64,000 nucleotides of DNA from Candidatus Korarchaeum sp. (GTDB lineage: Archaea > Korarchaeota > Korarchaeia > Korarchaeales > Korarchaeaceae), in contig JAWAID010000001.1 of assembly GCA_038888615.1 (NCBI GenBank), positions 496,001 to 560,000 on the forward strand. Direction: 5' to 3'. Of the stretch, positions 30,181-39,691 are shown one piece after another. Both the position numbers and the translations under genes were made by a program. Under the pieces are notes generated by a model, which ran no database searches, was not told the origin of the DNA, and was given only the letters and a program-made list of their open reading frames with translations. How positions within the stretch are numbered: the stretch's first letter is position 1; every line of letters starts with the position of its first letter.

Positions 30181-30313
30181 GTGAGGGCGAGCGGCCATAG
30201 CGGCCAGGGACACACCCGGACCCATTCCGAACCCGGAAGTTAAGCCTGGCCGCGTTCCGCGGAGTACTGAGCTCCCCAAGGGCTCGGGAAACGCGGAAGC
30301 TGCTAAGCCCCAC
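30181..30313 (+). rRNA. rrf: 5S ribosomal RNA
   Basis: The plus strand carries the archaeal 5S core: GCGGCCATAGCGGCCAGGG, ACACCCGGACCCATTCCGAACCCGGAAGTTAAGCC (loop B/C and helix III), and GAGTACTGAGCTCCCC with GGGAAACGC (loops E and D). The termini pair as GUG/CAC and GGGC/GCCC with one bulged A, giving a 133-base molecule. No 16S or 23S gene lies in the window, so it is an isolated 5S gene, as in many Thermoproteota. Its last 11 bases overlap the 3' end of thiI on the other strand. Confidence 0.93.
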
Positions 30314-36970: not shown

Positions 36971-38056
36971 TTAAGAATAAATCTTATATCTCAACTTAGC
37001 CGCTATCCCGCCTATGCTTTCTAACTTCTCCCCTGGTTCGCTTTCAGAATTTATTATTCGGAACTCAGCTCTAGTTCTCTCGCATCCCTCCAGCAAGTAG
37101 AAAACGTCGCCTCTGATGTCGGGATCGAAGAAGAGGGAGCTCGAGATGAGCACTAACTCCGCTGCTCCCTGATCAACGACTCCAATCACCTCTTTGAGTC
37201 CATACACCACGAGCTCCGATCCCTTAGCGAGGAGATTGAAGATCTCATCTACGTTCATCATGTCCTTAGTGAGCTCGAGTTCCCTCAACACCTTATCAGC
37301 TTCCCCTCTTCTTAACATCTCTATCACCCCTGAGAATGTCGCACTGCTGGCATCGCCCTCCCTGATCTTCTCCCCGAGCTCAGGATCCTTCAGCTTCACG
37401 TAGGAGATGAGCTTCTCCTTGGTGAATCCCGGCCCTCCAATCACTATTGCCTTAGGCTTAACCTTGCTGTTCAGTTCATGCAGGACGCTTAGGACCTCCG
37501 AGAAGTACCTCCTCTCCTCCCCCTCCCTCCCCCTCAGGTCTTCCATCTTGGAAGGGAGCTTTGATCTTACATAAGCTACTTCCTCGGCTCTGATAGGGTT
37601 TACCCTAGCTATAGTAGCTCCTTCGTCGTCTATTGCCACTAGAACAAGCTCTCCCTTCTCTGAAAGACTTTCTGCTTTCTTAAGAATATCTAAATGAGCT
37701 TTTTTCCAGGATTTCTTGATTACCGTGAGTACGGAGCCCTCGTCAACGGAGAAGGTGTGGTGTTGCCCTTGAATCCCGAACTTGTCAGGTCCAACCCTTA
37801 CTACACCGGAGATCCTCAACCTGGATGAGTAGTGATCTAGCTTAACCTTATCGACCTCTATCGTAAGCGTCATAGGGACCCTCTCCCCGCTATCAGCTCT
37901 TATCCCATCTTGCTTGACCCTCCTGAGAGTCCTCATTGTCACGAGATCCCCCTTCTCGATCACTGCGGATAACCAGTACATATCGTTCAAGTTTTCTATC
38001 TTTATTTTCACGATTCCCCTCTTAAGATCTTCCTCCAGGATCCTCAAGGATTTCAC
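36971..38056 (-). CDS. pelA: Pelota (Dom34) ribosome-rescue factor
   Basis: 361 residues with three eRF1-related domains: an Sm-like N-terminal domain ([23 protein letters not shown]), the central domain starting near [16 protein letters not shown], and the C-terminal domain with [18 protein letters not shown]. There is no GGQ loop, which separates Pelota from release factor aRF1. With aEF1A or aABCE1 it dissociates stalled ribosomes. It lies 9 bases downstream of dnaG, so the two are probably co-transcribed. Confidence 0.93.
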
Positions 38057-38065
38057 CTATAAGTC

Positions 38066-39280
38066 TCACTGGATGGTATATATCGCGAGACCGGCGCCCT
38101 TCCTCACTATATCCTTGGCGACGTTCCCTACTATAGCCTTGACACCGACCTCGTAAGCTCGGTCAAGTATCCTTTGGGTGATCACTCTATCATAAACTAT
38201 ATACCTCACGCCCTTAAGGTCGTTGAGCTCATTCAGGAGCTCCCCTACCGAAGTCTCCTTCATAACGTTGAGGTCATCGTCTAGGAAGATGACCTTATCC
38301 GTATTTCTGACCCTCTCGTAAAATCCTCTGAACATTTCTGGAATCCTCAATAATCTCTCATCTACATCATACGAGGTCGTCCTACTCTCAGAAACGGGCT
38401 TAGATTCTACTTGGACGTACTTCTCTCTCATAAGCGATATGCCTAACTCCCTCCTCACATCATCGGCTGGGACAGCTGAGGATAACGCTTTTCTTATCTC
38501 CTTAGCTGTCAACTCCTCCACAACCTTCCCATCAGGCGCTCTAGCCACATAATCGATATCTGTCTGCTCTAATAAGGTTCTCAGAACCATCTCTCCACCT
38601 CTATCCCCATCAACGAAGGCTATAGCTTCCTTCTCAGATATCAGCTTTACTAGGGATTTAGGGACCCTCTCTAAAGCTCCGCCCATCGCTATTACGTTAT
38701 CGAAGCCGTACTTCAACAGGTTCATCACGTCAGCTCTACCCTCAACCACTATTATCTCAGGAGACTCCTCGATACCCCTGCCTGCTGGGAGCTGTTCCTC
38801 CCCATAAAGCATGAAACTCGACTTAGCGCTCTCCCTTTCAACGAATTCTATAAGCCTCCTGAAGCTATCCTCCTTCTCTATGGACCAGTTCTTCAGTATC
38901 TCAGTAGCCCTCCTAGCGATTTCGTTTCTCCTCTCCTCCCTCTCATCTACTATCCTTATTAGCTTGAAGCTAGCCTGATAAGGCCCGACCTTATCGATTG
39001 TTTCCATTGCAGCAATGAGGAGAGCTGTTCTAACCTTATCCAGCCCTGAATACAGCTCTACTACACCCTTAGACCCTTCTCCCTCCCTCCTCAGCTTTAT
39101 GTTTATCCTACCAATTTTCCCAGTTCTTTGAAGTTCCTTGAGCTCCAACTCAGGCCCCAAGAGGCCCTCCAGTTGTCCGAATATGGCGCCTATGACATCA
39201 CTCGTCTCCACAACCCCGTTAACCGATACTTCGAGCTTAGCTATGTACTTAGGATGGAAAGCATCCTTCTTACCTTCCAT
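38066..39280 (-). CDS. dnaG: DnaG-type primase, archaeal
   Basis: 404 residues. The archaeal DnaG core is a Toprim domain with IIVVEGRADVMNLLKYGF (catalytic Glu) and FVDGDRGGEM (DxD), flanked by archaeal-specific N- and C-terminal parts. It is reported to associate with the exosome in archaea and has primase activity in vitro. I start at ATG 39280 (MEGKKDAFH), preceded by GGGAGGT at 8 bases; the longer version from 39307 lacks such a site. The leader contains the H/ACA-type RNA at 39305-39391. Confidence 0.92.
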   Translation of the reverse strand: MEGKKDAFHPKYIAKLEVSVNGVVETSDVIGAIFGQLEGLLGPELELKELQRTGKIGRINIKLRREGEGSKGVVELYSGLDKVRTALLIAAMETIDKVGPYQASFKLIRIVDEREERRNEIARRATEILKNWSIEKEDSFRRLIEFVERESAKSSFMLYGEEQLPAGRGIEESPEIIVVEGRADVMNLLKYGFDNVIAMGGALERVPKSLVKLISEKEAIAFVDGDRGGEMVLRTLLEQTDIDYVARAPDGKVVEELTAKEIRKALSSAVPADDVRRELGISLMREKYVQVESKPVSESRTTSYDVDERLLRIPEMFRGFYERVRNTDKVIFLDDDLNVMKETSVGELLNELNDLKGVRYIVYDRVITQRILDRAYEVGVKAIVGNVAKDIVRKGAGLAIYTIQ

Positions 39281-39304
39281 CAAGTTAAACCTCCCTCTCT
39301 GATA

Positions 39305-39391
39305 CACTGTCCGCCCGCCAACTAGTCCCCAGAGGTCATCGATCAGCCCACGCTTTCCTCCCTACCTCCGAGGTCATCGAGTGGCGGGCGG
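39305..39391 (-). ncRNA. H/ACA-type pseudouridylation guide RNA (predicted)
   Basis: Read on the minus strand. A perfect 10-bp basal stem joins CCGCCCGCCA (39382-39391) to TGGCGGGCGG (39311-39320) and is followed at once by ACA (39308-39310). Inside, a 10-bp upper stem joins CCTCGGAGGT to ACCTCTGGGG. Between the stems lie an 8-base (CTCGATGA) and a 6-base (ACTAGT) strand, forming a pseudouridylation pocket with 16 bases from its top to ACA, as in archaeal H/ACA RNAs. The apical part has CTGA and GATGA, compatible with a kink-turn for L7Ae. The predicted target would read ACUAGU-UN-UCAUCGAG or a subset. Confidence 0.7.
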
Positions 39392-39411
39392 TAATTATAC
39401 GACACTTGCCG

Positions 39412-39422
39412 CTAATATAATC
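39412..39422 (-). promoter_or_regulatory. TATA box of the H/ACA RNA / dnaG transcript
   Basis: GATTATATTAG on the minus strand, centred 26 bases before 39391, exactly where the basal stem of the H/ACA RNA begins. Only 24 bases separate the predicted RNA 3' end from the dnaG ATG, so dnaG is probably transcribed from the same promoter. Confidence 0.55.
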
Positions 39423-39487
39423 TCTTCGGATGAGTCGGTACTGAGTAACGCTTATAGCTCTCATACCTGAGGTGAGGCGGATGAATC

Positions 39488-39691
39488 ATGGGAACGGTAA
39501 GAGAGAGGGCCATTAAGAGGGTAGCTTATAAGCTCGTGAAACAGTATCCGGACCTCTGGACGGAGGACTTCGAGCATAATAAGATAATACTATCTCAGAT
39601 AGCTGAGATAAAATCTAAAACATACAGGAACAGAATAGCTGGCTATATAACTCGTCTGAAGGTTAGAGAGAGACAGGGAACCCTCATATAG
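39488..39691 (+). CDS. rps17e: ribosomal protein eS17
   Basis: 67 residues, the normal archaeal length. VRERAIKRVAYKLVKQYPD, DFEHNK and the strongly conserved RNRIAGYITRL identify eS17. The ATG follows GAGGTGAGG, and a TATA-like GCTTATAGC lies near 39449. It diverges from the H/ACA-dnaG-pelA unit. Confidence 0.95.
   Translation: MGTVRERAIKRVAYKLVKQYPDLWTEDFEHNKIILSQIAEIKSKTYRNRIAGYITRLKVRERQGTLI

What the first reader, a model, noticed from the sequence alone, without database searches (positions are those of the whole stretch)
39305..39391. H/ACA guide RNA in the leader of dnaG
Minus strand: a perfect 10-bp basal stem, a 10-bp upper stem, an 8+6-base bipartite pocket, 16 bases from pocket to ACA, and ACA flush with the stem. 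A TATA-like box is centred 26 bases before its first base. These features together are the archaeal H/ACA layout. The RNA ends only about 25 bases before the dnaG ATG, so the guide RNA and the primase mRNA probably share one transcript, which would need processing.
Basis: partly seen in the sequence, partly recalled or inferred. Interest (0 to 1): 0.65.

Follow-up and report, generated by a model that had tools for sequence, protein, structure and literature searches.

The report
H/ACA RNA leading dnaG–pelota operon
Just in front of the archaeal gene dnaG sits an unannotated small RNA of the H/ACA kind (RNAs that tell an enzyme where to convert uridine to pseudouridine); it has kept this exact position across a whole class of archaea, probably as the first part of the dnaG message, although the RNA it acts on in this organism is not yet known.

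Summary
Minus strand 39391-39308 is the only H/ACA-shaped site in the window on either strand; none appeared in six shuffled windows. It is a real RNA. It occurs once in all 16 genomes of the genus and in 9 further Korarchaeia genomes. In all 25 the next gene is dnaG, and pelota follows wherever the stretch held reaches that far. 97.4% of base pairs are kept, 12 of 24 change on both sides, and ACA and the apical kink-turn are retained. TATA-like boxes lie 22-29 nt before the RNA in most lineages. In two lineages the box lies 41-43 nt upstream, where an extra outer stem lengthens the RNA. Only 27 nt separate ACA from the dnaG ATG, so RNA and mRNA almost surely share a transcript (inferred, no RNA data). 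Rfam has no such family. Cbf5 and L7Ae genes are present.

Weak point: the guide's target. No U in 16S, 23S, 5S, tRNA, SRP or RNase P RNA pairs convincingly with this pocket. The class-level relative G025 pairs 4+7 Watson-Crick with 23S U~1777 (E. coli), and the same site gives the longest one-sided match in Korarchaeum, so it is a lead. Six Thermofilales genomes carry a different covarying H/ACA hairpin upstream of dnaG.

The parts
39308..39391 (-). H/ACA sRNA, basal stem through ACA (84 nt)
   Evidence: fold, covariation, conservation in 25 Korarchaeia genomes
39382..39391 (-). basal stem, 5' strand CCGCCCGCCA
   Evidence: 6 of 10 pairs with changes on both sides, 97.8% of cells paired
39374..39381 (-). 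5' pocket strand CUCGAUGA (in relatives CNNNAUGA: three variable positions, then AUGA nearly invariant)
39364..39373 (-). upper stem, 5' strand
   Evidence: 5 of 10 pairs with changes on both sides, 96.0% paired
39337..39363 (-). apical kink-turn: A.G pair with the GAU bulge on the 3' strand, short helix GG/UC (covarying A-U, G-U, G-C), tandem G.A/A.G, GG/CU, loop AAAGCGUGGG
   Evidence: textbook tandem G.A in G017/G021/G020; in this genus an A-U pair replaces one of the two G.A pairs
39327..39336 (-). upper stem, 3' strand
39321..39326 (-). 3' pocket strand ACUAGU (AYUAGU in relatives)
39311..39320 (-). basal stem, 3' strand UGGCGGGCGG
39308..39310 (-). ACA box, invariant in the 18 aligned sequences while neighbouring bases change (one further relative, G016, has UCA)
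39413..39428 (-). promoter: BRE-like CGAAGAGA plus TATA-like TTATATTA, centred 25.5 nt before the RNA
   Evidence: equivalent box at -22 to -29 in most lineages, at -41/-43 where an outer stem is added
39290..39295 (-). Shine-Dalgarno-like GGGAGG of dnaG
   Evidence: kept in the genus alignment
38066..39280 (-). dnaG (archaeal DnaG, exosome cap subunit)
   Evidence: NF003108, 394.8 bits; directly downstream of the RNA in 25/25 Korarchaeia genomes
36971..38056 (-). pelota (Dom34), 9 nt after dnaG, third member of the conserved unit
   Evidence: TIGR00111, 226.4 bits; follows dnaG in relatives
39488..39691 (+). divergent neighbour, ribosomal protein S17e; linkage kept in the genus and G017, G021, G019 only

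Best explanation
This is an archaeal box H/ACA small RNA whose gene is fused to the dnaG-pelota transcription unit. Transcription starts at the RNA's 5' end from its own TATA/BRE promoter and runs on into dnaG and pelota, so the newly made RNA is the 5' leader of that mRNA. L7Ae (on the apical kink-turn) and Cbf5 (on the ACA and basal stem), with Nop10 and Gar1, would assemble on it and protect an excised ~84-nt sRNP, with dnaG translated from its Shine-Dalgarno site just downstream. The RNP would pseudouridylate a stable RNA. The best candidate for the ancestral target is 23S U~1777 (E. coli numbering), clear in the class-level relative G025 and half-preserved in Korarchaeum. Shown here: structure, covariation, conservation, synteny, promoter placement, presence of Cbf5 and L7Ae genes. 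Inferred: co-transcription, excision, RNP assembly, the target.
For: Covariation 97.4% paired, 12/24 pairs with double changes, 0/500 shuffles, all slid controls far lower. One copy per genome in 16/16 genus members and in 9 more family, order and class members, down to DnaG at 47% identity. DnaG is next in 25/25 and pelota follows. ACA is invariant while flanking bases vary (one further relative, G016, has UCA). The kink-turn has a covarying inner helix, and tandem G.A in several lineages. TATA at -22 to -29, shifting to -41/-43 where an 8-11 bp outer stem extends the RNA (G024, G025), so promoter and RNA boundary move together. Cbf5 and L7Ae genes present. Only such site in the window. Target lead: G025 pocket pairs UUUGUUA/UAACAAA and CAGU/ACUG across the U-N gap, 11 WC pairs, reached by 2 of 2000 shuffled pockets; the same site tops the strict Korarchaeum scan, with 7 pairs on one side in all five rRNAs.
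Against: No target for the Korarchaeum pocket beats shuffled pockets. At 23S U~1777 the 5' pocket strand does not pair in Korarchaeum beyond two pairs, the n-1 pair is G-U, and G018, G019 and G022 break the 3' side. Spacing (16 nt) and upper-stem length (11 layers to the second G.A position in the genus) lie outside the 14-15 nt / 10-layer rule for productive guides (PMC4652768), although inside the general ranges given there. No outer processing stem in this genus. No RNA data.
Confidence: 0.72

Rival explanations
1. The element works mainly in cis: an H/ACA-like RNP (L7Ae, or L7Ae-Cbf5) bound to the dnaG leader controls translation or stability of the dnaG-pelota mRNA, and the pocket no longer guides modification in Korarchaeum.
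For: dnaG is next in 25/25 genomes, often with only 20-60 nt to the start codon. No target found in stable RNAs. Three positions of the 5' pocket are free to vary. The products, an exosome subunit and pelota, are RNA-surveillance factors (PMC4227792).
Against: The invariant ACA and the covarying 10-bp basal stem are needed for Cbf5, not for a simple L7Ae switch. Outer stems that suggest excision exist in G018, G020, G024, G025. In G016/G020 the RNA lies ~180 nt from dnaG. The G025 pocket fits a 23S site.
Confidence: 0.2
2. An ordinary independent H/ACA gene with its own terminator that merely lies next to dnaG; dnaG is expressed from elsewhere.
For: The RNA has its own promoter. In Thermofilales L234 a TATA-like stretch lies between the RNA and dnaG.
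Against: In most Korarchaeia 20-60 nt separate ACA and dnaG, too short for a promoter plus leader with a Shine-Dalgarno site; linkage kept over the whole class although S17e is not.
Confidence: 0.12
3. A chance hairpin or terminator of the S17e or dnaG unit.
For: GC-rich inverted repeat in a short intergenic region.
Against: Covariation, invariant ACA and kink-turn, conservation over the class, no T-run, no such site elsewhere in the window.
Confidence: 0.01

Closest known systems
Archaeal box H/ACA sRNAs of Pyrococcus/Archaeoglobus (Pab and Afu RNAs; 10/5/9 and 10/6/9 folds, PMC4652768)
   Same: Single hairpin with internal-loop pocket, apical kink-turn, ACA flush with the basal stem
   Different: Lower stem 10 bp, 16 nt from pocket to ACA, 11-layer upper stem in the genus, one kink-turn G.A replaced by A-U, no recognised target, fused to an mRNA; no Rfam family matches
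Sulfolobales/Aeropyrum Sso1-type H/ACA RNA for tRNA-Tyr Psi35 (described in PMC4652768)
   Same: H/ACA RNA aimed at something other than the usual rRNA sites is a precedent
   Different: The Korarchaeum pocket does not match any tRNA conserved across the genus
Pyrobaculum H/ACA-like RNAs sR201-sR210
   Same: Crenarchaeal-type kink-turn hairpins, variable geometry
   Different: Those mostly lack the lower stem; this one has an unusually long one
H/ACA hairpin upstream of dnaG in six Thermofilales loci (found here)
   Same: Same position relative to dnaG, same architecture, covarying stems
   Different: Different pocket (AGAGAG / GUUAA) and apical loop; homology with the Korarchaeia RNA not shown

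Membership tests
Archaeal box H/ACA sRNA | Stem - internal-loop pocket - stem hairpin with covarying helices | tested here: met
   97.4% of cells paired, 12/24 pairs with double changes
Archaeal box H/ACA sRNA | ACA (ANA) box directly 3' of the basal stem, 14-16 nt from the upper stem | tested here: met
   ACA invariant in the 18-sequence alignment (UCA in G016), 16 nt here, 15 nt in G022/G019; outside the stricter 14-15 nt rule for productive folds
Archaeal box H/ACA sRNA | Kink-turn or K-loop for L7Ae in the upper stem | tested here: met
   U.U, G.A, A.G with NNU bulge in G017/G021; A-U plus G.A in the genus; inner helix covaries
Archaeal box H/ACA sRNA | Upper (GA) stem of 10 layers for productive guides, 8-11 in general | tested here: inconclusive
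   10 layers in G017, G018, G020-G022, G024; 11 in the genus if counted to the second G.A position
Archaeal box H/ACA sRNA | Pocket complementary to a target around an unpaired U-N | tested here: inconclusive
   No significant target in this organism; 4+7 WC match to 23S U~1777 in G025
Archaeal box H/ACA sRNA | Cbf5 and L7Ae encoded in the genome | tested here: met
   (Nop10 and Gar1 not tested)
Archaeal box H/ACA sRNA | Expression as a discrete RNA bound to Cbf5/L7Ae; a pseudouridine that depends on it | not testable with these tools
   needs RNA and RNP data
cis-acting L7Ae kink-turn leader | Kink-turn within the mRNA leader close to the ribosome-binding site | tested here: met
   27 nt from ACA to ATG here, next to dnaG in 25/25
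cis-acting L7Ae kink-turn leader | No need for ACA or pocket | tested here: not met
   ACA invariant in the alignment and basal stem covarying
Known Rfam H/ACA or other RNA families | Score above a family's gathering threshold | tested here: not met

The most novel reading that the evidence does not exclude
Across a whole archaeal class, and in parallel in Thermofilales, an H/ACA RNA is an obligatory 5' leader of the mRNA for the exosome subunit DnaG (with pelota in Korarchaeia). Release of the guide RNA and expression of an RNA-decay factor would then be coupled, a feedback link between RNA modification and RNA degradation that I found described nowhere in the papers I could search.
Probability: 0.3. 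Interest if true: 0.8.

Novelty: new member of a known kind. Interest (0 to 1): 0.52.

Why it matters
[quoted passage not shown] A guide RNA held in the leader of one mRNA over a whole class gives a concrete case for asking how such RNAs are cut out, and whether the exosome subunit encoded behind it takes part. It also adds an H/ACA family absent from Rfam and shows that an H/ACA gene next to dnaG occurs in two distant archaeal groups.

Tried and rejected
(2) tRNA-Val D-loop, 9 continuous Watson-Crick pairs in this genome: not conserved in the genus. (3) 16S U~1052: only 3+3 pairs. (4) SRP and RNase P RNA: no convincing or conserved site in the genus. (5) H69 U1915/U1917: fits G141 (and by inspection G102), which are not next to dnaG, but not Korarchaeum, whose H69 reads UAACUCUGA. 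(6) Reading the pocket as a C/D box or second kink-turn: the tandem G.A would require breaking the conserved upper stem. (7) Antisense hairpin: the coding strand scores about 106-112 bits, the reverse about 26-28. (8) The element between TATA and RNA as a repeated promoter motif: no second good copy in the genome.

Full report
What is there. On the minus strand, 39391-39308 folds as a 10-bp basal stem, an 8+6-nt internal loop, a 10-bp upper stem capped by a kink-turn, and ACA flush with the basal stem. A mechanical search for this architecture finds exactly this one site in the 64-kb window on both strands and none in six block-shuffled windows. No Rfam family matches at the gathering threshold, and none overlaps the RNA at E <= 5 locally.

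Where it is. The window is G000:C1:496001-560000. G010 is a single contig of 1,590,757 bp, the size I recall for Ca. Korarchaeum cryptofilum. The locus L201, identical in contig length to G022:C62, is titled Ca. Methanodesulfokora washburnensis. The host is therefore a Korarchaeum-like archaeon. The RNA lies between rpS17e (divergent, +) and dnaG (-), with pelota 9 nt behind dnaG.

Conservation. A DNA search finds one copy in each of the 16 genomes of the genus. A covariance model built from 18 sequences adds the other Korarchaeia genera and families: 25 genomes in all, including G024 (order) and G025 (class). In all 25, DnaG is the next gene, even in G025 where DnaG is only 47% identical; pelota follows wherever the stretch held reaches that far. 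S17e is a neighbour only in the genus and in G017, G021 and G019. Two further hits, G141 and G102, are not next to dnaG; by pocket they look like guides for 23S helix 69 and are probably separate H/ACA RNAs picked up through shared architecture.

Structure test. On the 18-sequence alignment, 97.4% of cells form standard pairs, 12 of 24 pairs show changes on both sides (37 cells), and no shuffle of 500 reaches these values; partners slid by 1-3 columns give 32-55%. ACA is invariant in that alignment although the base before it is G, C, A or U and the base after it varies; one further relative, G016, has UCA. The apical part keeps a bulge NNU followed by GA. In G017, G020 and G021 it is a textbook kink-turn with tandem G.A pairs; in the genus one of these pairs is A-U. 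The two-pair helix behind it covaries A-U / G-U / G-C.

Promoter and transcript. A TATA-like box lies 22-29 nt before the RNA in most lineages. In G024 and G025, where an 8-11 bp outer stem precedes the hairpin, the box sits at -41/-43, that is roughly 26-32 nt before the outer stem. Promoter and RNA boundary thus move together, which argues that transcription starts at the RNA. Only 27 nt separate ACA from the dnaG ATG here, with a Shine-Dalgarno site inside, so no separate dnaG promoter fits. G016 and G020, with about 180 nt, are the exception. Co-transcription is therefore the best inference. Outer stems in G018, G020, G024 and G025 would help excision; the genus has none.

Does it guide, and what? 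The 5' pocket strand is CNNNAUGA (three variable positions), the 3' strand AYUAGU. Scans of 16S and 23S of up to eight species, with tolerant offsets, G-U pairs and mismatches, give nothing above shuffled pockets. tRNAs, SRP RNA and RNase P RNA also give nothing conserved. One lead remains. The G025 pocket pairs UUUGUUA with UAACAAA and CAGU with ACUG around U-U in 23S 'CCCGACUG-UU-UAACAAAAAC', 11 Watson-Crick pairs with the first 3' pair 14 nt from one of its ACA boxes; 2 of 2000 shuffled pockets do as well. The same U is the top site of the strict Korarchaeum scan, where UAGUUGG pairs with CCGACUG in all five species (in G024, UAGUCGG pairs with six Watson-Crick pairs and one G-U). But there the other pocket strand gives at most two pairs and the n-1 pair is G-U. 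The site corresponds to about U1777 of E. coli 23S (counted in a 2906-nt copy). I hold it as the likely ancestral target (about 50% for G025, 25% for Korarchaeum). By the rules of PMC4652768 (10-layer upper stem, 14-15 nt to ACA) the Korarchaeum fold is borderline, so loss of guide function or a target outside stable RNAs is possible.

Mechanism. Best reading: one transcript H/ACA-dnaG-pelota; L7Ae and Cbf5 (both genes present) bind the nascent leader and define the stable sRNA; DnaG, an exosome cap subunit that binds RNA and enables tailing (PMC4227792), is translated from the remainder. Steps shown: gene order, promoter placement, RNA structure. Steps inferred: co-transcription, excision, RNP, modification.

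A parallel. Looking upstream of dnaG in named archaeal genomes turned up an H/ACA-shaped hairpin in six Thermofilales loci, L207, L219, L231, L234, L240 and L243: three of them in the strict mechanical search (with none expected from shuffles), L207 in a looser one, and two more by inspection. An alignment of the six gives 11 of 19 pairs with double changes, 0 of 500 shuffles. Pocket and apical loop differ from the Korarchaeia RNA, so whether this is one ancient linkage or two is open.

Verdict. As an RNA it is a new member of a known kind; the leader arrangement is the surprising part and is directly testable.

Noticed in passing
window 39397-39412 (-) and the same place in all 16 genus loci: GCGGCAAGTGTCGTAT, a near-dyad CGNCANNTGNCG element between the TATA box and the RNA start, strongly conserved in the genus and without a second good copy in the genome. 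It may bind a regulator of the divergent S17e / RNA-dnaG promoters.
   Followed up: partly
L207, L219, L231, L234, L240, L243, about 45-180 nt upstream of dnaG: Covarying H/ACA hairpin family with pocket AGAGAG / GUUAA in Thermofilales, nested in an outer stem, not matched by Rfam; target not found in the 16S and partial 23S of L207.
   Followed up: partly
L164 (G141) 1501-1585 and L165 (G102) 1501-1583: H/ACA RNAs whose pockets match 23S helix 69 at U1915 and U1917: in G141 GUUA/UAAC plus GAGGGUUA/UGACCCUC, or UAGU/ACUA plus GAGGGU/ACCCUC. One pocket may serve two neighbouring uridines; G102 judged from the pocket only.
   Followed up: partly
23S rRNA of G010, G012, G022 (L053, L054, L185): Sequence departs right after CUCUCUUAA of helix 69, which looks like an rRNA intron absent from G000, G001, G009, G018-G020.
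   Followed up: no
23S helix 69 of all Korarchaeia read (L052-L056, L184-L188): Loop reads UAACUCUGA, with C at the position of the usual A1916 (UAACUAUGA in G141).
   Followed up: no
window 30187-30308 (+): 5S rRNA gene away from the 16S/23S operon; no tRNA gene in the window.
   Followed up: no
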